In this document: positions 3,740-63,478 of the stretch, in pieces
Numbering within the stretch: the stretch's first letter is position 1
Layout: each line of letters begins with the position of its first letter
Assembly: GCA_003586005.1 (NCBI GenBank)
Contig: NSKI01000002.1
Span: 62,001 to 126,000, forward strand
Source of the DNA: Haloplasmatales bacterium 4B
Lineage (GTDB): Bacteria > Bacillota_I > Bacilli_A > Haloplasmatales > Haloplasmataceae
Direction: 5' to 3'
DNA: 64,000 nucleotides
Program-made: the position numbers and the translations under genes
Notes under the pieces: generated by a model
Database searches by the model: none
Seen by the model: only the letters and a program-made list of their open reading frames with translations
Told to the model about the DNA's origin: nothing

Positions 3740-4597
3740 ATGAAACTATTGAGTTTTTTTCAACCAAATAATATTGATGAAGCAAAAGTTTTGCTTTCTA
3801 AATATGAAAATTCTAAATTATTAGCAGGTGGGACTGATTTACTACTTGACTTTAAAAAAGATATGAACGTTCCACAATATTTAATTGATTTGAGTAAGAT
3901 ATTGGAATTAAAAAGTATTGTTGAAAATGAATCAGATATAACGATTGGAAGTATGGTGACATTTACCCAAGTAAAGGGAAATAAGTTAATTAAGGATAAT
4001 TTCAATTCAATAATTCTATGTGCTAAAAGCATGGGGTCACCACAAATTAGAAACGTTGCTACAATAGGTGGTAATATTATTAATGGGGCTGTGGCAGCTG
4101 ATATAGTCCCTTGCGTGATAAGTCTTGATGGTATTTTAGTTTTTGAATCTATCGATACTTTAAGAGAAGTTCGTTGTGAAGATTACTTTAGAAATAACTC
4201 AATTGAAAAAATAAAAGGAAATGAAATTTTAACAAAAATAATTATTCCTAAAAGACCTTGGCTCAGTGGATATTATAAATTAGGGAAAAGGAACTCTCTA
4301 GCAATTGCTAGGGCTAACACTGCTTTAAGTCTTTCAATTGAAGAAAATATAATAAAAGATCTTCGGGTTTGCCTTGGAGCTGTTGGTAAATTTCCTTTTA
4401 GAGTAAATGAATTAGAAAGTCGTGCTGTTGGTAAAATTGTTGAATGGTTATTTGATGATGAAGCATTAAATATTCTTGAAAATACAGTGTATGAAAGTAT
4501 AAAGGAAAGAAAAACGATGCCATTTAAAAGAAATGCGATTAAAGGTGTTTTTAAAAATGCATTACTAAGCGCTGTTGAAAGTGGAGGGAACAAATGA
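3740..4597 (+). CDS. Molybdenum hydroxylase FAD-binding subunit
   Basis: A 285-residue CoxM/XdhB/NdhF-type FAD subunit. The flavin-binding signatures LLAGGTDLL (residues about 29-37) and SPQIRNVATIGGNI (about 99-112) are present, and the C-terminal CO dehydrogenase flavoprotein domain follows. It accepts electrons from the 2Fe-2S subunit encoded next, whose start overlaps this stop by four bases (ATGA). The order FAD, FeS, long Mo, short Mo is the same as ndhF-ndhS-ndhL-ndhM of Eubacterium barkeri nicotinate dehydrogenase. The purine operon context suggests a purine substrate here. Confidence 0.9.
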   Translation: MKLLSFFQPNNIDEAKVLLSKYENSKLLAGGTDLLLDFKKDMNVPQYLIDLSKILELKSIVENESDITIGSMVTFTQVKGNKLIKDNFNSIILCAKSMGSPQIRNVATIGGNIINGAVAADIVPCVISLDGILVFESIDTLREVRCEDYFRNNSIEKIKGNEILTKIIIPKRPWLSGYYKLGKRNSLAIARANTALSLSIEENIIKDLRVCLGAVGKFPFRVNELESRAVGKIVEWLFDDEALNILENTVYESIKERKTMPFKRNAIKGVFKNALLSAVESGGNK

Positions 4598-5076
4598 TAG
4601 AAGTAACTCTTAAAATTAATGGGAAGATGTATACTAGAAAAATTAATCCTATGCTTCGCTTAATTGACTTTATTAGAGATGAAATAAAGTTAAAGGGAAC
4701 AAAAGAAGGTTGCGGTGAAGGTGAATGTGGTGCATGCACAGTGATTATGAATGGGAAAACTGTTAACTCGTGTTTAGTACTTGCAGCAAGTGCCAATGGC
4801 GCTGAAATTACGACCATCGAAGGTTTGAGCAATGGAGATCATCTTCACCCTATACAGGAAGCTTTTATAGAAGTAGGTGCTGTTCAATGTGGCTATTGTA
4901 TTCCGGGTATGATTTTGAGTACTAAAGCTCTGCTTGATGAAAATCTAGATGCGACAGAAGCACAAATTAAAGAAGGTATTTCAGGAAATTTATGTAGATG
5001 TACTGGCTATACAAAAATTGTTGAAGGAGTAAAAATTGCTCAGAAAAAAATAATTAACAGTCAGGAGGGAGATTAG
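4594..5076 (+). CDS. Molybdenum hydroxylase [2Fe-2S] subunit
   Basis: A 160-residue iron-sulfur subunit with two clusters. The plant-ferredoxin-type site is CGEGECGACTV plus NSCLV. The helical-bundle site is QCGYCIPGM and GNLCRCTGY, with all eight cysteines present. It relays electrons from the Mo subunit to the FAD subunit. Its ATG overlaps the FAD subunit stop by four bases, and its TAG overlaps the next GTG start by one base. The genes are therefore translationally coupled and probably made in equal amounts. Confidence 0.94.
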   Translation: MIEVTLKINGKMYTRKINPMLRLIDFIRDEIKLKGTKEGCGEGECGACTVIMNGKTVNSCLVLAASANGAEITTIEGLSNGDHLHPIQEAFIEVGAVQCGYCIPGMILSTKALLDENLDATEAQIKEGISGNLCRCTGYTKIVEGVKIAQKKIINSQEGD

Positions 5077-6323
5077 TGCAAGCTGTTGGAGTAAATTATA
5101 CTAGACCTGATGTTTATGGTAAGATTTCAGGGAAGGCTGTTTACCCTGATGATATAGAATTTGAGGGGATGCTTTACGCAGGTGTTAAAAGAAGTACCAT
5201 TGCTTATGGTAAAGTTTTAAGTATTAATATCGATGAAATTAAACAACTCCCTGGTGTTGAATATGTTATTGATTATACTATGATTCCTGGAGCAATATCT
5301 CATGGTGTTATATTTAAGGATATTCCGATATTAGTTAAAGATATTGTTAAGAGAATTGGTGATTGTCTGATTCTTATTGTTACTAATGATAAAGAAAGCC
5401 TTAAAAATGCCTTAAAACAAGTAAAAGTAGAATATGAGGAATATGAGGGAGTTTTTACTGTTGATGATGCTTTAAAGGAGGATGCACCAATTATTGGTGA
5501 TGGAAGTAATATTTTGTATGATATTAAGATCAAGGCTGGTAACATTGATGAAGGTTTTAAAGAAGCTTTGCATATTACAGAAAACTTGTATTGCTCACAA
5601 ATGACAGAGCATGCTTTTTTGCAACCTGAAGCTGCTGTTGCTTGTTATGATGATGATGGGACTTTAAAAGTTTATGTTGCAACACAGTATCCCCATTATG
5701 ATCGTGAAGAAGTTGCAAGGTGTCTTAATGTTTCAGAAGATAAAGTAAAAATAATTAATACGACAATAGGTGGAGCGTTTGGGGCGAGAGAAGATATTAA
5801 TCCACAATGCCACGCCGCTATAGCAACCTATATTTCCAAAAAACCTGTAAAAGTATTATATACTAGAGAAGAATCAATTATTTCTCATAGTAAAAGACAT
5901 CCAATGAAAATGCATTATAAAACTGGTGTAACTAAAGATGGTAAATTATGCGCATTAAAGGCTAGGATATACGGCGATACAGGAGCTTATGCATCGTGGG
6001 GAATGAATGTCCTTAGAAAAGCTGCAGTGCATGCCACAGGCCCGTATGTTATTCCTAATGTGGATATCCAAGCCTTGGCTGTTTATACTAATAACCCTTA
6101 TAGCGGGGCAATGAGAGGTTTTGGAGCTACACAAGTTCCTTTAGCCTCAGAAAGTCAAATGGATATATTAGCAGAAAAACTAAATATGCATCCTTTAAAA
6201 TTTAGATATATAAATTCCTTTGAAGTTGGCAGTAATACAGCAACAGGACAAAAACTTGTTAGCAGTGTGGGAATCAAAAAATGTATTGAAAAAATAGCTG
6301 AAATAGCTGAAATCAAGCTGTAG
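5076..6323 (+). CDS. Molybdenum hydroxylase, large molybdopterin subunit (N-terminal half of a split Mo subunit)
   Basis: 415 residues covering the aldehyde oxidase a/b hammerhead domain and the first molybdopterin-binding domain: GGAFGAREDINPQ, YTREESI, and GAMRGFGATQ. It ends at a TAG just where a normal single-chain Mo subunit would continue. The next gene begins 12 bases on, with its own ribosome site, at the residues that should follow. The start is GTG at 5076, eight bases after AGGAGGGA. Size and break point match NdhL (about 425 residues) of Eubacterium barkeri nicotinate dehydrogenase, so I read this as a natural subunit split. Confidence 0.87.
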   Translation: MQAVGVNYTRPDVYGKISGKAVYPDDIEFEGMLYAGVKRSTIAYGKVLSINIDEIKQLPGVEYVIDYTMIPGAISHGVIFKDIPILVKDIVKRIGDCLILIVTNDKESLKNALKQVKVEYEEYEGVFTVDDALKEDAPIIGDGSNILYDIKIKAGNIDEGFKEALHITENLYCSQMTEHAFLQPEAAVACYDDDGTLKVYVATQYPHYDREEVARCLNVSEDKVKIINTTIGGAFGAREDINPQCHAAIATYISKKPVKVLYTREESIISHSKRHPMKMHYKTGVTKDGKLCALKARIYGDTGAYASWGMNVLRKAAVHATGPYVIPNVDIQALAVYTNNPYSGAMRGFGATQVPLASESQMDILAEKLNMHPLKFRYINSFEVGSNTATGQKLVSSVGIKKCIEKIAEIAEIKL

Positions 6324-54448: not shown

Positions 54449-54478
54449 AATTTAATTCAAGCAAAGGTGGTGAGTCGT

Positions 54479-56671
54479 ATGTCTGAAATATCTATGAAAT
54501 ATGAACAACTTATAGAAGCAGCTAGAGTTTATATATCAATGCCTAAAAGCGTTAGAATAATTGAAAAAGCATTTAAATATGCTGAAGAAATGCATCATAA
54601 TCAGTTTCGTAAATCTGGAGAACCATATATTATTCATCCTCTAGAAGTTGCGCTTATTTTGACAACATTTAATGCAGGACCTACAACAATAGCTGCCGGT
54701 CTTCTTCATGATGTTTTAGAAGATACGGGCGTCACGCCACTTGAAATGAAAAATGAATTTGGTGAAGAAATTACCTCTTTAGTTGATGGAGTATCTAAGT
54801 TAGGGCAATTAAAATTTGTTTCTAAAGAACAAGCCTTAGCACAAAATCATCAGAAGATGTTTTTAGCTATGGCTAAGGATATTCGGGTTATAATTATTAA
54901 ATTGGCTGATAGATTACATAATATGCGAACTTTAAAATATATGCCTAAAGATAAGCAAGTGGCTATAAGCAAAGAAACATTGGAAATATTTGTACCAATA
55001 GCTCACCGTTTAGGGATGTATCGCTTAAAATCTGAATTAGAAGACAGATGTTTAAGATATATTGATGTTGATGAATATTATTATATAGCTAGTTTAATTA
55101 ATGATAAACAAAAAGAACGAGAACAAGATATAACGAACATGGTTAAAGAGCTTTCATCACTTTTAGATGAATATAATGTAGAATATGAGATTAAAGGAAG
55201 AATCAAAAATATCTATAGTGTTCATAAAAAAATGCGAGAAAAATATAAAGAATTTTCAGAAATATTTGACCTATTAGCACTAAGATTAATTGTTAATGAT
55301 GAAGCTGATTGTTATCATGTATTAGGGATTATTCATGCTAATTGGAAACCAATACCTAAACGATTTAAAGATTATATAGCTATGCCAAAACCAAATATGT
55401 ATCAATCACTTCATACAACAGTTATTGGTCCAAACGGGAAAATCTTTGAAGTGCAAATAAGAACTAAAGAAATGGATAATGTAGCTGAATTTGGGGTTGC
55501 TGCTCACTGGGCATATAAAGAAAACCTTGGTAATACTGCAGAACAAGAACAAATTGAGATTCAGAAAAAATTAAAATGGTATAAAGATATGGTTGAGTAT
55601 TCAGAAAATGATGAGGCTGATGATATTGTCGATATTATGAAAGACGATATCTTTTCTGCTAATGTTTACGTATTCACACCAACAGGTGATGTACTTGATT
55701 TTCCAGCTGGGTCAACTCCATTAGATTTTGCGTATCGCATTCATAGTGAAATTGGTAATAAAACTGTTGGTTCAATAGTAAATGGGAAAATAGTACCTTT
55801 AACTTATGAATTACAAACTGGCGATGTTGTTGAAATCAAAACATCAAAACAATCTTTTGGGCCTAGTGAAGGGTGGACTAAAATTGTTAAGACACAACAT
55901 GCTAAAGGTAAAATCAAACAGTTTTTTAATAAACAAAATCGTAATTTGATAATAGAACAAGGAAAAGATTTAGTTTTAAAAGCATTAGAAGGTAAAGTAA
56001 GTAGTGTTACGGAATTTATTAATAATGAAAAGTTTATTAAAAAATTCCAAAAGCAGGGAATTAATAATTCTGAAGACCTTTTATATGCGATTGGGAAAAA
56101 ACAGATTTCAATTCAAAGTGTTTTACAAAGAGTAGAAAATGAAAATGTTGGTTTTGACATTAAATCAATTTTAGAACATTTTAATGAAGATAAATTTTAT
56201 GAAAAAGAAAAAAAGAATAAGTCTAGCGTTACAGGTATTATCGTTGAGGGATTAGATAATCCCCATGTTAAAATATCAAAATGTTGTAGCCCTATTCCTG
56301 GTGATGAAATTATCGGTTATGTCACAAAAGGAAAGGGAATAACAATTCATCGATCTGACTGCAGGAATGTAACAGATTCAGAGAAAGAAAGAGTAATTAA
56401 TGTTTATTGGTCTGATAAATTAGAAGGACATAAATATGAAGTAGATTTAATGATTACTAGCTTTAATAGAAATACAATGCTTACTGATATAATAAATACT
56501 ATAAACACAGTTGGAGTTAACTTAGTTGCTATTTCAGCAAATGTATTTAAAGATAGTACCACTACAGTAAAAATAAAAGTTTTAGTTGAAGATGCTAATC
56601 GTTTAAATAACCTTGTCCTTAACTTAAAAAAAATAAAAGATATTTATTGTGTAGAAAGACTAAATAAATGA
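54479..56671 (+). CDS. relA: Bifunctional (p)ppGpp synthetase/hydrolase
   Basis: 730 residues. HD domain with AGLLHDVLEDTGV and RLADRLHNMRTL (hydrolase intact), synthetase domain with RIKNIYSVHKKMREKY and YQSLHTTVIGP, TGS (VFTPTGDVLDFPAGSTPLDF), and a C-terminal ACT domain. ATG 54479 follows AAAGGTGG. Both activities look complete, as in Bacillota Rel. Confidence 0.96.
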   Translation: MSEISMKYEQLIEAARVYISMPKSVRIIEKAFKYAEEMHHNQFRKSGEPYIIHPLEVALILTTFNAGPTTIAAGLLHDVLEDTGVTPLEMKNEFGEEITSLVDGVSKLGQLKFVSKEQALAQNHQKMFLAMAKDIRVIIIKLADRLHNMRTLKYMPKDKQVAISKETLEIFVPIAHRLGMYRLKSELEDRCLRYIDVDEYYYIASLINDKQKEREQDITNMVKELSSLLDEYNVEYEIKGRIKNIYSVHKKMREKYKEFSEIFDLLALRLIVNDEADCYHVLGIIHANWKPIPKRFKDYIAMPKPNMYQSLHTTVIGPNGKIFEVQIRTKEMDNVAEFGVAAHWAYKENLGNTAEQEQIEIQKKLKWYKDMVEYSENDEADDIVDIMKDDIFSANVYVFTPTGDVLDFPAGSTPLDFAYRIHSEIGNKTVGSIVNGKIVPLTYELQTGDVVEIKTSKQSFGPSEGWTKIVKTQHAKGKIKQFFNKQNRNLIIEQGKDLVLKALEGKVSSVTEFINNEKFIKKFQKQGINNSEDLLYAIGKKQISIQSVLQRVENENVGFDIKSILEHFNEDKFYEKEKKNKSSVTGIIVEGLDNPHVKISKCCSPIPGDEIIGYVTKGKGITIHRSDCRNVTDSEKERVINVYWSDKLEGHKYEVDLMITSFNRNTMLTDIINTINTVGVNLVAISANVFKDSTTTVKIKVLVEDANRLNNLVLNLKKIKDIYCVERLNK

Positions 56672-56834: not shown

Positions 56835-57113
56835 ATGAAAATAGTTATACAAAGAGTAAGTAACGCAAATGTTAAAGTTGATGATAAAGTAGTTGGAGAA
56901 ATAAATAGCGGTTTATTGCTACTAGTTGGCATAACACATAATGATACATCAGAAGATGTAGATTATTTAGTAAAGAAAATAATAAACATGAGAATTTTTG
57001 AAGACGAAAATGGTAAAATGAATATTTCATTACTACAAAAAGGTTATGATATATTATCAATAAGTCAATTTACGAGGTGTGTTGCCTTAGGGCCAGAATT
57101 AGTATATAATTAA
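56835..57113 (+). pseudogene. dtd: D-aminoacyl-tRNA deacylase, truncated by insertion after about codon 80
   Basis: Starts as a normal Dtd ([20 protein letters not shown]...) with AGGAGG upstream and stays intact to QFT (to 57073). It then reads [12 protein letters not shown] and stops, losing the catalytic SQFTL(F)A and C-terminal GAMM..V.NDGPVT segments. Its position after relA is the ancestral one in Bacilli. The first 80 residues are about 82% identical to the complete copy at 59508. It cannot be a functional deacylase. Confidence 0.88.
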
Positions 57114-57145
57114 GCTATGGAAAATATATCCATAGCTTAATTTTT
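57108..57145 (+). terminator. Strong terminator ending the truncated dtd transcript
   Basis: Perfect 13-bp stem AATTAAGCTATGG/CCATAGCTTAATT, 9-base loop, T tail; 18 bases before the nSTAND gene. It isolates that gene from upstream transcription. Confidence 0.88.
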
Positions 57146-57162
57146 ATGAAAGGGGATTGTAT

Positions 57163-59487
57163 ATGTTTAATTATAGTAATTTAAGTTCAAAAGATTTTGA
57201 GAATATATGCAAAGATATTCTTGAAAAACAATTAGACATAAAATTAAGAACATTTGCTAATGGACCAGATGGAGGAATAGATATTAAAGGATTCATATCT
57301 AATGACATTATAGGTCAAGGTAAATTATATTTAAATCAAAGTACAACACAAGCTGTAGATAATGTTAAGAAAGAACTAGTGAAAATAAAAAAGATAGATC
57401 CGAAAAAATATTTTATATTTGTTGGACGTGAATTGACCCCCAAAAATATAACTGATATATATAATCATTTTATTGATTATATGGAAAATGAATCATTTGT
57501 TTGGGATTTAAATATGATTGATGACTTTTTAAAGAATAACAAAGATGTATTATTAAAACATCATAAACTTTGGATGGAATCAGCAGATGTATTAACAAGT
57601 TTGCTAACATCTACAATTGATTTTCAAACTCAGATTAAAATTAAAGATTATTTAGATCAATCAAAATTTTTTGTAAAAACAAAATTTTATCATGAAGCTA
57701 TAAATTTATTAGAAAAATTTAATGTAGTTTTACTACATGGTGATGCAGGAGTCGGAAAAACTACCCTATCAGAAATGATTCTTAATCTATTTCAAATAAA
57801 AGGTTATGAAATATTATATCAATCTAATGATGATTATTCTAAATTGTTTGAAAAATTATCATCATCGGAAGATGTTAAACAAATAATTTTATTAGATGAT
57901 TTCTTGGGACAACGTTACTCTGAACTTAAAGAAAAAAAGGTGACTCCTATTTTACATTTAATTAATTATGTATTAACAAATCCTAATAAAAAGTTAATTT
58001 TAAATAGTAGAATAACGGTTCTTAATGATGCCAAATCTCAATATGAGAATTTTAATAGTAGAATTAATCATAGTAGGATACAAAAATATGAACTTAATAT
58101 GAATAATCTAACTGATACAGAAAAAGGATTAATTTTTTTAAATAATATGCGAAGATTTAATGTTAGTGATGAACATTATGAAGATATAAGGAAATATAAA
58201 AGATATAAAGTAATAGTTAGACACAAAAATTATAATCCACGAGCAATAGAATATGTTTCTCAAAACTTTAAAATGATACCTGCTGACCACTACTACGCTT
58301 TTATTATAGAAACTTTAAAAGATTCATTTAAAGTATGGGAAAATGAATATGATTATAAAATTGAGGAAATCGATCGAATTTTAATACAAACAATTTATAC
58401 TTTAGGAAATAAAGACGTTCCCGAACATATAGTTATTGAATGTTTTAATCAATTATTATCTAAGTTGAGAATATCTGGAGGATATCAGCAATGTTTTAGA
58501 AGATTAGAAAAATCATTTATTACCCTTACAATGATTGATACTAACCGTTTTTTAAAATTAAAAAATCCATCAATATATGATTTTTTAGATAAAAAGTCTA
58601 GTTCTGATTATTCAAATTTAATTACAATACTTGATAATAGTTTATACCTGGAGCAAGTTAATACTATCTTTTGGATAATGAAAAAGAATAACATACCTGT
58701 TAAGGATAATTTTGATAAATTATTCTTATTGAAGAGATTTGACAATAATTCACAATTAAATCCTTTAATAATAATGAAGGTATTCACTATAAAGCATAAG
58801 GTATATAAAAAATATCTAGAAAATATAAAAAGCAATATTGAAACAGACCCTTGGTCAACTTCATATATGAGTTTGTGTCTTAATAAGGAGTTAATTGATT
58901 ATTATGAAATAGATATATATGACACTTATAATGATTTTTCAAGAGTTTTTCTTTATGCAGACCTAAATGATTATTTAAAAGGTTTGATGATTTTTAATGA
59001 AAGAAACAACAAAGAGATATTCAATCATGAATTAACTTCTGAAATTTATAAAGAGATAAATTATAGAATTGATGATTACTACGATGATAACTTCGACTCC
59101 TTATTTAATGAATTTTTTGATAAAGAAAAATTATATTTTCCAGAGGAAATTGAGTATAGCATAGATAATGGTAATTATTCTATTGATTATATACCATCTG
59201 ATGTAATAGATGATTTATTAGAAGATTTTACACAACATCTTATCAAATCTTTAGTAGAATATATATCAATAGATTTTAAAAATCTCAGAACGGAATGGGT
59301 TAAATGTATTGATAGTTATCAATTTAGTGAATTATGTAATAAAATTAGTTTAGAAGATATATCGCAAAAATTTATCGAAGTAATTCAATATGGAGAGTAT
59401 ATGGATTATATGGCAGATGAATATAGAGAGATGTCTAGGGATGATTCATTAGAATCGATATTTGAAGATACTTATAATAACAAATAA
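57163..59487 (+). CDS. Restriction-endonuclease-like/nSTAND3 NTPase (candidate anti-phage protein)
   Basis: 774 residues from ATG 57163 (AAAGGGG seven bases upstream). Residues 1-100 look like a PD-(D/E)xK nuclease: [21 protein letters not shown] (D40), GQGK (Q52, K54) and LTPKNI. Residues about 165-370 are an nSTAND3-type ATPase: [20 protein letters not shown], Walker [10 protein letters not shown] (193-201), Walker [10 protein letters not shown] (about 242-250) and [10 protein letters not shown]. The C-terminal 400 residues are helical with an acidic tail and are probably the sensor. Similar nuclease-STAND fusions defend bacteria against phages. It lacks any partner gene. Confidence 0.75.
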
Positions 59488-59507
59488 TCTATATAAAGGA
59501 GGAAACT

Positions 59508-59954
59508 ATGAAAATAATAATACAAAGAGTCATCAATGCTAATGTTATTGTTGATAAAAAAATAGTTGGAGAAATAAATAATGGTCTTTTATTATTAGTT
59601 GGTGTAACACACGATGATACGTTAGAAGATGTAAATTATTTAGTTAGAAAAATTATCAACATGCGAATATTTGATGATGAAAATGGAAAAATGAATATTT
59701 CCTTAATACAAAAAGGTTACGATATACTTAGTGTTTCCCAATTTACATTGTTTGCACAAACCGAACGAGGGAATAGACCTGGATTTTCTGAAGCAGCTAA
59801 ACCTACATTAGCCAAACAATTATATGAAGAGTTTAATAAAAAGTTAAGAGAAAATAAAGTTAGAGTTGAGACGGGAATATTTGGAGCAATGATGGAAGTT
59901 TCTTTGGTAAACGATGGACCCGTAACAATAATTATTGACTCTAAAAACAGGTGA
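59508..59954 (+). CDS. dtd: D-aminoacyl-tRNA deacylase (complete copy)
   Basis: 148 residues, full length. [20 protein letters not shown] and the C-terminal [16 protein letters not shown] carry the catalytic and cross-subunit Gly-Pro-type motifs. It recycles D-aminoacyl-tRNA. RBS AAAGGAGG. It lies 20 bases after the nSTAND gene and overlaps the serine recombinase start region by four bases (to the GTG) while the preferred recombinase ATG is nine bases past the stop. Its 5' 239 bases duplicate the truncated copy at 56835. Confidence 0.93.
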
Positions 59955-59962
59955 TTAAGATT

Positions 59963-61798
59963 ATGGAAAATTCAAACAATCAAGCTCTTAAAAATTTAAA
60001 CGAGTACATCAAAAAAAGAAAAAAGAAATTTCTTAATAGTTCTGAAAAAATTATTGTTTATGTTAGGGTAAGTTCATTTGCTTCTGTTGAAAAAGATAAT
60101 TCAATTCCTAAACAAAAGGAATTAATAAAAGATTTTATTAGTAACGATAATGATTTATCTAAGTTCATAGTTAATGGAGAATACACAAGAGATGTAATCA
60201 TGGTTGAAGACCCAGCAGAATCAGGACTTAAATTTGATGATCGTCCAGGTTTAGTAAAGATAAGAAAACATATTAAAGAGGATAATGTATCTCATCTACT
60301 TGTATTTAAAGTTGATAGACTAGGTAGATCAATAGGACAAAATGCAAAAATAAGTGAAGAATTAGAAAAAAACGGTGTGCATCTAATATCTGTAACTGAA
60401 TCATTTATAGACACTAGAAAAAATAAGAGTGAATTTTACTTTACTTTATTATCAATGTTTGCTCAAATGGAAATTCAGAATATAAAAGAACGTACACAGT
60501 TAGCGATGATGAATAGAATGAGTCAAGGTTATGCTCCACCAGGAACGACTCCTTACGGTTTCAAAAGACATAAATCAGAAGAATTAAATGGAACAATATT
60601 TATACCTGCACCATATGAAGAAGATATTATAAGAAAAATTTTTGAGTTAGCTGCATTAAATACTAGTAATGCTGATATAAGTAAAATTATATATGGTATG
60701 GATAATGATTTATTATTTTCGACATCACAAATAATGAGAATGATTCGGAATCCTATATATAAAGGAATAGTTCGTTATAATAATGAAAGTAGAAATAAAC
60801 GCAAAGGAAAAGGTAAAGAAATCCTTGTAAAAGCATTATTTGATGGCCTAGTAAGTGAAAAATTATGGCAAAAGGCAAATGATACAAGAAAATCCTATAC
60901 ACGAGATAAGGATAAATATTTGAGAAAAAGTCTGTTCCCTGATAAAATTACTTGTCCTTACTGTGGGGATATATTACAAACCAAAAATAGTAAGTCTAAG
61001 TTGAACGGGGAAGAGGTTTATTATACTTATTATGTTTGTAGATCTAGTAGATCTGATAATGATATAAATAATACGTGTAGTTTGAATAAATTACCAATGG
61101 AGCTATTAGAAGCATATATAATTTGTGAACTGATTAAACAAGTAGAAGAAAATAATAATTACAATAATATTAAAGAATTTCACTCCTTAGTTTTTGGACA
61201 AATGAAATATTATTATAGTTTACTTAAAAATATTGATGTAGAAGCTAAAAAGGCTCAACTAACAAAGAAAATTGAAAATGAAGATAAAAAATTAGAAATA
61301 TTAAGAGACGAGTTCTATAATAACGAAATTAGTGAAAAAGAATACATTGATAGAAAAAAATTAGTAGTATCTTATAAAAAAGATTATCAAGATCAAATAA
61401 ATGAACTTAGTGATAATTCTAGTGATAGTAAGATAAAGTACACCATAGCAAAACATCACAAAAAAGAGTTAAAAGAATTAATTAAATTTATGACTATTGG
61501 ATATAAAATTCATTTTGAAAATGAAAAACAAAGACCTTATTTTTCATTATCATTTTCTAATTTAATAGAGTCAATTCATTTAATAAAAAAGAATGATAAT
61601 GATAAATTAAACATTCAGGAAAGATATTCTGTTAAATTCAAATTTACAAATAAAATGATTAAATTTGATAATGTCGGATATGGTTCTATATTAAATAATC
61701 ATGAAAGACTTAAAAGTTATAAAGATATTTCGATGAATAATGTAAGAAATTTTGAAAATTATGAAGTTGATAATATTAATGAATTATTGAAACATTAA
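59963..61798 (+). CDS. Large serine recombinase (site-specific integrase)
   Basis: 611 residues. Resolvase domain: YVRVSSFASVEKDNSIPKQK (catalytic Ser37), FKVDRLGRS and LLSMFAQMEIQNIKERTQ; recombinase domain with PPGTTPYGFKR; zinc ribbon CPYCGDIL plus two later cysteines; then a coiled coil (about 400-480). ATG 59963 follows AGGTGA, which overlaps the dtd stop. Serine integrases usually lie beside their attachment site, which fits integration in dtd. Confidence 0.93.
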   Translation: MENSNNQALKNLNEYIKKRKKKFLNSSEKIIVYVRVSSFASVEKDNSIPKQKELIKDFISNDNDLSKFIVNGEYTRDVIMVEDPAESGLKFDDRPGLVKIRKHIKEDNVSHLLVFKVDRLGRSIGQNAKISEELEKNGVHLISVTESFIDTRKNKSEFYFTLLSMFAQMEIQNIKERTQLAMMNRMSQGYAPPGTTPYGFKRHKSEELNGTIFIPAPYEEDIIRKIFELAALNTSNADISKIIYGMDNDLLFSTSQIMRMIRNPIYKGIVRYNNESRNKRKGKGKEILVKALFDGLVSEKLWQKANDTRKSYTRDKDKYLRKSLFPDKITCPYCGDILQTKNSKSKLNGEEVYYTYYVCRSSRSDNDINNTCSLNKLPMELLEAYIICELIKQVEENNNYNNIKEFHSLVFGQMKYYYSLLKNIDVEAKKAQLTKKIENEDKKLEILRDEFYNNEISEKEYIDRKKLVVSYKKDYQDQINELSDNSSDSKIKYTIAKHHKKELKELIKFMTIGYKIHFENEKQRPYFSLSFSNLIESIHLIKKNDNDKLNIQERYSVKFKFTNKMIKFDNVGYGSILNNHERLKSYKDISMNNVRNFENYEVDNINELLKH

Positions 61799-61934
61799 GT
61801 ATAAATGAACAACCTTTTCCTTAAATTCATTAGTATATTTGCTATATTTCATTTAATCCTCCCAAAAGAAAAAAACTATGATAATTAATTTTAACTTAGT
61901 TTCTTATTATAGATAGTAGAAATAAATAGTTAAA

Positions 61935-61967
61935 GAGGAAATGACTTTAAATCTGTCAATTCCTCTC
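61935..61967. terminator. Hairpin between the recombinase and the next minus-strand gene
   Basis: AGAGGAAATGAC pairs with GTCAATTCCTCT with one mismatch; moderately T-rich flanks on both strands. Serves as the end of two convergent genes. Confidence 0.55.
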
Positions 61968-62034
61968 TTAAGTTTTTAGGCATAAGTAATGCTAGTTTTA
62001 AATAAACGTGAACAATACGAAATCTAAAACAAAA

Positions 62035-62304
62035 TTACAAATCTTCAATATTTAAAACTTCATCATTGAAGTAAAAATTTTTATCCTCATAAATATCTTG
62101 GTAACAATCATAATGATATTTTACCAAGTAATCTTCTAGGGTGCTTTTATTTAAAATTCGTTTTAGTTCATAAAATGAGTTAAAATCATTCATATACTCA
62201 AAAACATTTCTACTACTATCGTATATCCTGTAACCATAATCTATAACCTTATCGCTTCCATCATTATTTAGATTTATGAATTTTGTGTACTTAATATTAT
62301 ACAT
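62035..62304 (-). CDS. Small hypothetical protein
   Basis: 89 residues, acidic and Tyr/Asn-rich, start ATG after a good AAAGGTGAT site. No domain recognised; the C-terminus DEVLNIEDL is acidic. Oriented against the recombinase and within the putative island, so it may be cargo. Confidence 0.6.
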   Translation of the reverse strand: MYNIKYTKFINLNNDGSDKVIDYGYRIYDSSRNVFEYMNDFNSFYELKRILNKSTLEDYLVKYHYDCYQDIYEDKNFYFNDEVLNIEDL

Positions 62305-62682
62305 GAATCGATCACCTTTTTAATTTATTACTATATTTTATGATATATTATAATATGTATGTTATTATCAAAGAATTTTATTGTCATACAAAAACAATCA
62401 AAGAAAAGGATAAACTAATTTGATAAACTAATTTTTAGTGGCAAAAACAGGGCATATAGAAACAATTAATTAAAATAAGAATATCTTAATGTAATTATGC
62501 AGTTGATAATGAAATTTCAGTATCATTATCAATTCAACATATATTTTAAGGTGGAAACTTTTCAAATGATCACCTGGCAAGTATTAGATTACCATATATA
62601 ATATAACTAACTGACTATTAATTGTTTAACGTTATCAATAATTATGTTATAATATCTCTAGAAAAATGATGGAGGAATTTAT
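62305..62682. other. AT-rich intergenic interval with a 9-bp inverted repeat
   Basis: Contains TTGATAATG (62503-62511) and CATTATCAA (62524-62532), an inverted repeat fit for an operator or attachment half-sites, and TATAAT at 62648-62653 just before the gene at 62683. No gene is seen. Confidence 0.45.
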
Positions 62683-63114
62683 ATGAGTTGGGAAAAAGTA
62701 AATTTTAATAATTTTTCTTGGTATTACCATACAAAAGAATCAAACCTAGAACTATTTAAAAAATTTATTATTGAAAATGATATAGTTTCATTTAGAAAAA
62801 GTAAAACATATACATCTTTTAAACGATTTTTAGAAACTGGTAGAGATGCAGGTAAATATCCTGTAAATGATATGCTAGAATATCCTTATAAAGACCACGA
62901 TTACTATTTTAAAACAAAACATGGTAAAGTAATCTATATATCACAGCCTTATTCTGATTATGAATCAACTAAAAAGGAATATGATAATTTCTCTAATAAT
63001 TTAGATATAAAGTGTGTTGTTTATGATTCAAACTTTAGTTGGTACAGTCCTGGTCATTCATTATTAGTGATTGTAACTTTAAATGATATAAATGTAAAAG
63101 TATTTAAAGGTTAG
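62683..63114 (+). CDS. Hypothetical protein
   Basis: 143 residues, GATGGAGGA ribosome site. Aromatic-rich (NFNNFSWYYHT, HDYYFKTKHGKVIYISQPYSD, SNFSWYSPGHSLLVIV). The tail NDINVKVFKG is beta-like. It is not recognised; the H-K-H-G...P-Y-S pattern might be a small enzyme but this is speculative. Probable island cargo. Confidence 0.6.
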   Translation: MSWEKVNFNNFSWYYHTKESNLELFKKFIIENDIVSFRKSKTYTSFKRFLETGRDAGKYPVNDMLEYPYKDHDYYFKTKHGKVIYISQPYSDYESTKKEYDNFSNNLDIKCVVYDSNFSWYSPGHSLLVIVTLNDINVKVFKG

Positions 63115-63170
63115 CTGGTTTGTCAAATAATGTTTGGCAATAATGCACCAAAAAAATTTAGATTGAAATG

Positions 63171-63199
63171 ATTAAGTAATATTACTTAATTATTTTTAT
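63171..63199 (+). terminator. Terminator-like palindrome
   Basis: ATTAAGTAATATTACTTAAT, a perfect 20-base palindrome, followed by TATTTTTATT. Confidence 0.5.
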
Positions 63200-63227
63200 T
63201 ATTCAATTACTGATTATTATAGAGTGA

Positions 63228-63401
63228 CTGTTTGTTGATCTACTCTTAGAGTTGAGATATTTAACTGATTTTATAAATTATGTACTATGGGGAAAAGGTA
63301 AACATGTTTCAATTTTGACTGTTGCTAAAGCATTCGAATCTCTAATCTTTGTAATAGATATGTATGATGGTTCAACAGGTATATTGGTATTCTATTATTA
63401 A
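63228..63401 (+). pseudogene. Remnant or start-less small reading frame
   Basis: An open frame gives LFVDLLLELRYLTDFINYVL, then WGKGKHVSILTVAKAFESLI and FVIDMYDGSTG to a stop. It has no ATG, TTG or GTG at its head and no ribosome site. The composition looks protein-like. Probably the end of a decayed gene. Confidence 0.35.
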
Positions 63402-63478
63402 TTTTTGTCTTTATGATTGATACTTAAACTTTAAAACAACAAAGTGTGTTTGTTAGGGGACGAAAATATGATATAATG

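What the first reader, a model, noticed from the sequence alone, without database searches (positions are those of the whole stretch)
59508..61798. Large serine recombinase coupled to dtd, possibly a reusable defence-cassette landing site
The recombinase ribosome site overlaps the dtd stop, so the two are translated as one unit. If the cassette ends at 59746, the recombinase sits outside it, fixed beside the attachment site. This would be a stationary integrase that accepts cassettes into dtd, each bringing its own dtd 5' part. That would be an integron-like logic using a serine recombinase. If the element instead runs past 64000, it is an ordinary island with dtd as cargo.
Basis: inference. 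Interest (0 to 1): 0.7.

Follow-up and report, generated by a model that had tools for sequence, protein, structure and literature searches.

The report
Cassette arrays stacked in gene dtd
In one little-known bacterial family, mobile DNA repeatedly inserts at one conserved spot inside the housekeeping gene dtd, usually rebuilding the gene and leaving its old tail behind as a scar (up to 12 scars in a row); the recombinase flagged in this window lies inside such an element and is not a fixed integrase beside it.

Summary
In detail: an intact large serine recombinase (59951/59963-61798) has its ribosome site (AGGTGA, 59949-59954) on the stop codon of a complete dtd. The 'stationary integrase' reading is probably wrong here. 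A dtd 3' half lies on another contig (C20:21699-21905), preceded by the arm TTGTCCCTAAAAAAACACACTTCAC. The inverted counterpart of that arm follows the dtd 5' remnant at 57072-57096, and the two native halves rejoin in frame (148 codons). So the recombinase sits inside an element, or tandem of elements, running from 57073 past 64000. The wider idea, dtd as a reusable landing site, is supported in relatives. The arm occurs in 6 of 8 family genomes (19 sites, 17 followed by dtd 3' sequence from codon ~79; reversed control 0) and in 3 of 387 other class genomes. One genome has an intact dtd followed by 12 dtd 3' scars in 25 kb, separating short cargo cassettes, with no recombinase found. Cassettes rebuild the 3' half, not the 5' half. 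Two genomes' elements carry recombinases resembling staphylococcal CcrC/CcrB. Closest known: SCC composite islands and CIME accretion. New are the mid-gene target, the large gene-repair module and the array length. Excision and trans-mobilisation were not tested.

The parts
54467..56671 (+). relA, chromosomal gene upstream of dtd (left flank)
   Evidence: Pfam RelA_SpoT, TGS, HD_4; relA-dtd order shared by G001, G002, G004, G005, G006, G007
56835..57073 (+). native dtd 5' half (codons 1-79), left part of attL
   Evidence: 82% nt identity to the full copy; joins in frame with the C20 3' half
57066..57073 (+). att core CAATTTAC (dtd codons Q78-F79-T80)
   Evidence: last common bases of remnant and full copy; relatives' scars begin here
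57072..57096 (-). inverted arm (P'), right part of attL; start of the inserted element
   Evidence: weight matrix built from 15 attR arms: third of about 78,000 positions on that strand
57108..57142 (.). hairpin just inside the left end
   Evidence: DNA fold -12.2 kcal/mol, z -5.5
57157..59487 (+). STAND NTPase defence candidate (PDC-S73)
   Evidence: nSTAND3 2.5e-33; PADLOC PDC-S73 6.4e-103
59508..59954 (+). complete, element-borne dtd
   Evidence: Pfam 1.2e-58; SQFTL and GPVT motifs present
59739..59746 (+). uninterrupted att core CAATTTAC in the complete dtd (potential attB)
   Evidence: sequence
59949..59954 (+). ribosome site AGGTGA overlapping the dtd stop
   Evidence: sequence
59951..61798 (+). 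large serine recombinase (probable start ATG 59963), catalytic motif YVRVSS intact
   Evidence: Pfam; NCBIfam XisF 7.9e-27, CcrC 7.3e-23, both below cut-off
62035..62304 (-). small ORF, no Pfam family
62683..63114 (+). small ORF, no Pfam family
63403..63435 (+). possible decayed right-end arm of the first element
   Evidence: gapped alignment, 0.8% of random windows score as well; weak
63439..63463 (-). second inverted arm, probable left end of a second, tandem element
   Evidence: 17.8 bits against at most 7.5 in shuffles; best hit on that strand, 20.4 bits
63479..63505 (.). hairpin just inside the second left end
   Evidence: DNA fold -7.4 kcal/mol, z -3.7

Best explanation
In this bacterial family dtd holds an attachment site (attB) for serine-recombinase elements, in the codons of the SQFTL motif. 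SHOWN by sequence: in this genome dtd was cut at CAATTTAC, leaving attL (dtd 5' half plus inverted arm) at 57073 and attR (arm plus dtd 3' half) on contig C20. SHOWN in relatives: insertions at the same codon left 3'-half scars behind the same arm, downstream of an intact dtd. INFERRED: the recombinase and the complete substitute dtd of the window lie between the two ends, that is, inside the element. INFERRED: most incoming cassettes carry attP as [arm][core][dtd 3' half], so integration rebuilds dtd and pushes the old 3' half to the far end; attB is regenerated, the next cassette enters at the same place, and an array grows. INFERRED: the window's element uses the other solution, a symmetric attP that breaks dtd, made good by carrying a whole dtd in one transcript with the recombinase. 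INFERRED: 57073-63438 is one element of about 6.4 kb in tandem with a larger one that ends on C20. Cassettes without a recombinase are either decayed elements or are moved in trans; the data do not decide.
For: dtd 3' half on C20 behind the arm. Inverted arm at 57072. Native halves join to an intact 148-aa ORF. Arm found at 19 sites in 6 of 8 family genomes, one strand per genome, reversed control 0; 17 of the 19 are followed by dtd sequence starting at codon ~79. Outside the family 3 of 387 class genomes match, each with 3 mismatches. G004: intact dtd plus 12 scars in 25 kb. G005: rebuilt and displaced 3' halves are 99% identical and the identity ends at the stop codon. dtd of G000 is mosaic with the break at the crossover codon (p 0.0012 and 0.0002). 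Similar cargo behind dtd scars in different genera. Recombinases of G005 and C20 resemble CcrC/CcrB.
Against: C26 and C20 are separate contigs; their order is inferred. The 57072 arm is the weaker of two inverted arms. Only this genome shows the gene-breaking form of attL. G004 has scars but no recombinase found (its assembly is 85% complete). The Ccr-like genes on C20 and in G005 have interrupted reading frames. Which enzyme acts on the arm is unknown. Scar decay shows no order with distance.
Confidence: 0.75

Rival explanations
1. One reading: the STAND gene is a separate 2.7-kb cassette (57073 to about 59739) that brought its own dtd 5' half and inserted in front of an older recombinase element that stays beside dtd.
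For: Two dtd 5' halves, 82% identical, both end at the same core. Removing 57073-59739 would leave relA-dtd-recombinase, the layout of G005. The STAND gene stops only 20 bases before dtd.
Against: No arm at 59739. The other scars found in the family are 3' halves; no second 5' scar was found. A second left-end arm lies at 63439, beyond the recombinase, which fits a 57073-63438 unit better.
Confidence: 0.15
2. Plain decay: the arrays are remnants of many ordinary elements, each once with its own recombinase, that entered one after another and lost the recombinase (CIME accretion). No capture in trans takes place.
For: G005 cassette 1 and C20 still hold recombinases, and G005 cassette 2 holds a piece of one. 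Tandem CIME formation is described (PMC5704250). Several scars and arms are decayed.
Against: G004 cassettes are 1-5 kb with intact cargo genes and no recombinase trace by two searches; this does not exclude loss.
Confidence: 0.55
3. The scars are segmental duplications of dtd by homologous recombination or misassembly, not site-specific insertion.
For: Scars within G004 are alike (mostly 80-88%), as local duplication would give.
Against: Start at one codon, behind the same arm, in separately assembled genomes of five genera, each with different cargo; one of these contigs is 3.2 Mb long (G006).
Confidence: 0.03

Closest known systems
Staphylococcal cassette chromosome (SCC), its composite islands and pseudo-elements, and the Enterococcus cassette chromosome (ECC)
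   Same: Large serine recombinases related to CcrC/CcrB; one conserved housekeeping target; direct repeats from the target gene at element ends plus inverted arms; tandem composites; members without recombinase.
   Different: Target is dtd, not rlmH; the crossover is in mid-gene, so cassettes need a 3' half of about 215 bp to rebuild it, not only the gene's last bases; up to 12 scars in a row; recombinases score far below the Ccr cut-offs; different bacterial family.
CIME/IME site-specific accretion
   Same: Repeated insertion at one att site, elements without integrase kept between att sites.
   Different: Much longer array of much smaller units; each unit is marked by a coding-gene fragment.
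Integrons
   Same: Small cassettes without integrase, one entry site, cargo mostly in one direction (93% of coding length in G004).
   Different: Serine, not tyrosine, recombinase at the locus; scars are gene fragments behind an att arm; no stationary recombinase shown.
Serine-recombinase elements that target one conserved gene (survey PMC10083194)
   Same: Site-specific insertion into a conserved coding gene.
   Different: dtd is not mentioned in the main text of that survey; its supplements were not searched.

Membership tests
SCC element | cassette chromosome recombinase (ccrAB or ccrC) | tested here: inconclusive
   G005 recombinase: CcrC 1.4e-58, 199 bits against a cut-off of 900; window recombinase 7.3e-23, 81 bits; CcrC/CcrB are the best families for G005, XisF for the window copy
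SCC element | insertion in rlmH/orfX | tested here: not met
   insertion is in dtd
SCC element | flanking direct repeats with inverted arms | tested here: met
   dtd 3' halves as repeats; arm at attR, inverted arm at attL in G000
SCC element | excision as a circle by its own recombinase | not testable with these tools
   needs PCR, reads or an assay
Integron | IntI-type tyrosine integrase beside attI | not tested
   no dedicated search was made; the recombinases found beside dtd are serine recombinases
Integron | attC sites recombined as folded single strands | not tested
   the shared boundary found is an arm plus dtd fragment
CIME accretion | elements lacking recombinase kept between att sites at one target | tested here: met
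   G004 array: scars and arms, no recombinase found
CIME accretion | mobilised by a related active element | not testable with these tools
   needs excision or transfer assays

The most novel reading that the evidence does not exclude
dtd arrays are a serine-recombinase counterpart of integrons: recombinase-free cassettes marked by [arm + dtd 3' half] are captured in trans at one self-regenerating site inside a housekeeping gene and are exchanged between genera.
Probability: 0.3. Interest if true: 0.85.

Novelty: new variant of a known kind. Interest (0 to 1): 0.62.

Why it matters
It adds a cassette-accretion hotspot apart from the rlmH-linked SCC/ECC elements, with a target in the most conserved motif of a tRNA quality-control gene and a built-in repair module. 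The scars make insertion history countable, and the layout makes capture of cassettes in trans by a serine recombinase directly testable. I found no earlier report: two literature searches gave none on dtd as an insertion site, and a large survey of such recombinases does not mention dtd in its main text. Subscription papers and supplements were not searchable.

Tried and rejected
1) A recoded, integrase-immune attB in the element's dtd: the codons before QFT vary as much among the relatives' intact genes, so not supported. 2) Stratigraphy (scars more broken further from dtd): no trend in G004 (rho 0.08, p 0.81). 3) Relatives of the window recombinase: none in viral contigs, one 23% match in genome contigs, none at E<=1e-35 in 395 class genomes except its own, only distant ones (24-28% in the rows listed) in plasmids and phages. 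The G005 recombinase also has none in viral contigs. 4) Extra dtd copies outside the family: of the genomes listed in a sample of 392 of the phylum, all with a match have one except two with two (the listing of matches is truncated). 5) A second att junction at 59739: no arm found. 6) The reading-frame interruption motif of the Ccr-like genes in viral contigs: 15 exact hits, none in a recombinase.

Full report
OBSERVATION. The window is G000:C26:62001-126000; C26 is 140,147 bases long. A complete dtd (59508-59954) and a large serine recombinase (59951/59963-61798) overlap as described; AGGTGA at 59949-59954 spans the dtd stop. Pfam confirms both. A dtd 5' piece (56835-57073) follows relA, is 82% identical to the complete gene and ends at CAATTTAC.

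THE OTHER END. None is on the remaining 14 kb of C26, but contig C20 holds one (C20:21699-21905, minus strand). It starts at the same codon, after TTGTCCCTAAAAAAACACACTTCAC. Read inverted, a related arm follows the 5' remnant: GAGGTGTGTTGCCTTAGGGCC. Together they form the kind of dyad that serine-integrase attP sites have (established knowledge). A weight matrix built from 15 attR arms, the 57072 site not among them, puts 57072-57096 third of about 78,000 positions on that strand. Joined, the native halves give an intact 148-aa DTD. So these look like attL and attR of an insertion that broke dtd, with the recombinase and the complete dtd inside.

A COMPOSITE. The best inverted arm on C26 is not at 57072 but at 63439-63463 (17.8 and 20.4 bits with two pseudocount settings; shuffles reach at most 7.5). 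Both left ends are followed by TATAAT and a hairpin, and their 100-base stretches are more alike than chance (0.3% of random windows score as well). A decayed right-end arm may precede 63439 (0.8% of random windows). I therefore favour two tandem elements: 57073-63438 (STAND defence candidate, dtd, recombinase, two small ORFs), and a larger one with type I restriction genes and a nucleotidyltransferase ending on C20, where two Ccr-like recombinases, radC, an SSB gene and a PDC-M49A defence candidate lie. This division is inference.

RELATIVES. tblastn with dtd in 60 related genomes found extra dtd pieces only in this family; in a wider sample of the phylum, all but two of the other genomes listed with a match have one. 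G004 contig C161 reads relA, intact dtd (5506-5955), then 12 dtd 3' remnants up to 31354, then a tcdA-like gene; more pieces are on C66 and C113. G005 has three displaced pieces or more, G006 four or five, G001 one, G003 one. G002 and G007 have an intact dtd and no pieces. Most pieces that are not truncated begin at residues 77-80, and the arm TTRTCCCWTAANAAACACACTTCAC precedes them: 19 sites within 3 mismatches, 17 with dtd sequence after it, one strand per genome, 0 in the reversed control. Outside the family 3 of 387 class genomes match, each with 3 mismatches, about what chance gives.

HOW THE GENE IS REBUILT. In G005 the 3' half of the intact dtd and the displaced one are 99% identical, and the identity stops at the stop codon. 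This is what a cassette built as [arm][core][dtd 3' half], from a closely related strain, would leave. Both dtd genes of G000 are mosaic: up to codon 79 they side with G006, after it with G001 (16:5 against 4:14, Fisher p 0.0012; 15:4 against 5:19, p 0.0002). The codon was fixed beforehand by the crossover point; several reference pairs were tried and all point the same way (p 0.0002 to 0.04).

CARGO. G004 cassettes hold one to a few genes: Band_7, TetR, MerR, a methyltransferase, an ABC transporter, a sigma factor, TspO, an acyltransferase, so not mainly defence. G005's first cassette has AbiH. Cargo mostly points in dtd's direction (93% of coding length in G004, 81% in G005, 66% in G006). 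Similar cargo sits beside dtd scars in different genera: a Band_7 gene in G004 and G006 (66%), an RNase H gene plus neighbour in G005 and G003 (70%, 65%), the Ccr-like gene plus neighbour in G005 and G000 (61%, 71%).

RECOMBINASES. The G005 gene resembles CcrC/CcrB (1.4e-58) but scores far below the family cut-off; the two on C20 are its relatives. G004 has an array and no such gene by protein or Pfam search, on an 85% complete assembly. Which enzyme recognises the arm is not shown.

KNOWN RELATIVES. SCC elements use Ccr recombinases at rlmH and form composites and pseudo-elements (PMC7029136; ECC: PMC6222049). CIME accretion is the general description (PMC5704250). This is a variant of that kind at a new, mid-gene target. 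That it works like an integron remains possible and is not shown.

LIMITS. Eight genomes of one family, none named, several fragmented; no experiment; no strain-level comparison.

Noticed in passing
G000 C20 (reverse-complement coordinates 3141 and 4777, in L009/L008) and G005 C3 (rc 4443 and 11320, in L045): The Ccr-like recombinase genes are interrupted at the same place in the catalytic motif YLR|VST: TTRCG[ATAACG]TGTTTC (in-frame TAA) twice in G000, TTACG[CTGAG]TGTTTC (frameshift, TGA) twice in G005. The 80 codons after it are under strong purifying selection (synonymous differences 66-77%, nonsynonymous 12-16%), so this may be recoding, a recurrent scar, or recent loss. Unexplained.
   Followed up: partly
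window 63439-63463: Second inverted arm with TATAAT and a hairpin behind it: probable left end of a second element.
   Followed up: partly
dtd of G001 (L049) and G006 (L047): Two genomes of one genus have similar relA but only 57% (5' half) and 60% (3' half) identical DTD proteins, as if the whole gene had been exchanged.
   Followed up: no
G004:C161:13253 and G001:C55:9477: Arm sequences without dtd sequence after them: deletions, or a second kind of att site.
   Followed up: no
L006:10450-11820: SMODS-type nucleotidyltransferase (Pfam 1.3e-6; PADLOC cyclase 1.8e-11) next to type I restriction genes: possible CBASS gene.
   Followed up: no
G003:C81 (L048, reverse complement 3809-5575): A 588-aa gene on the other strand sits between relA and dtd in this relative, and the contig ends inside dtd at codon 87.
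   Followed up: no
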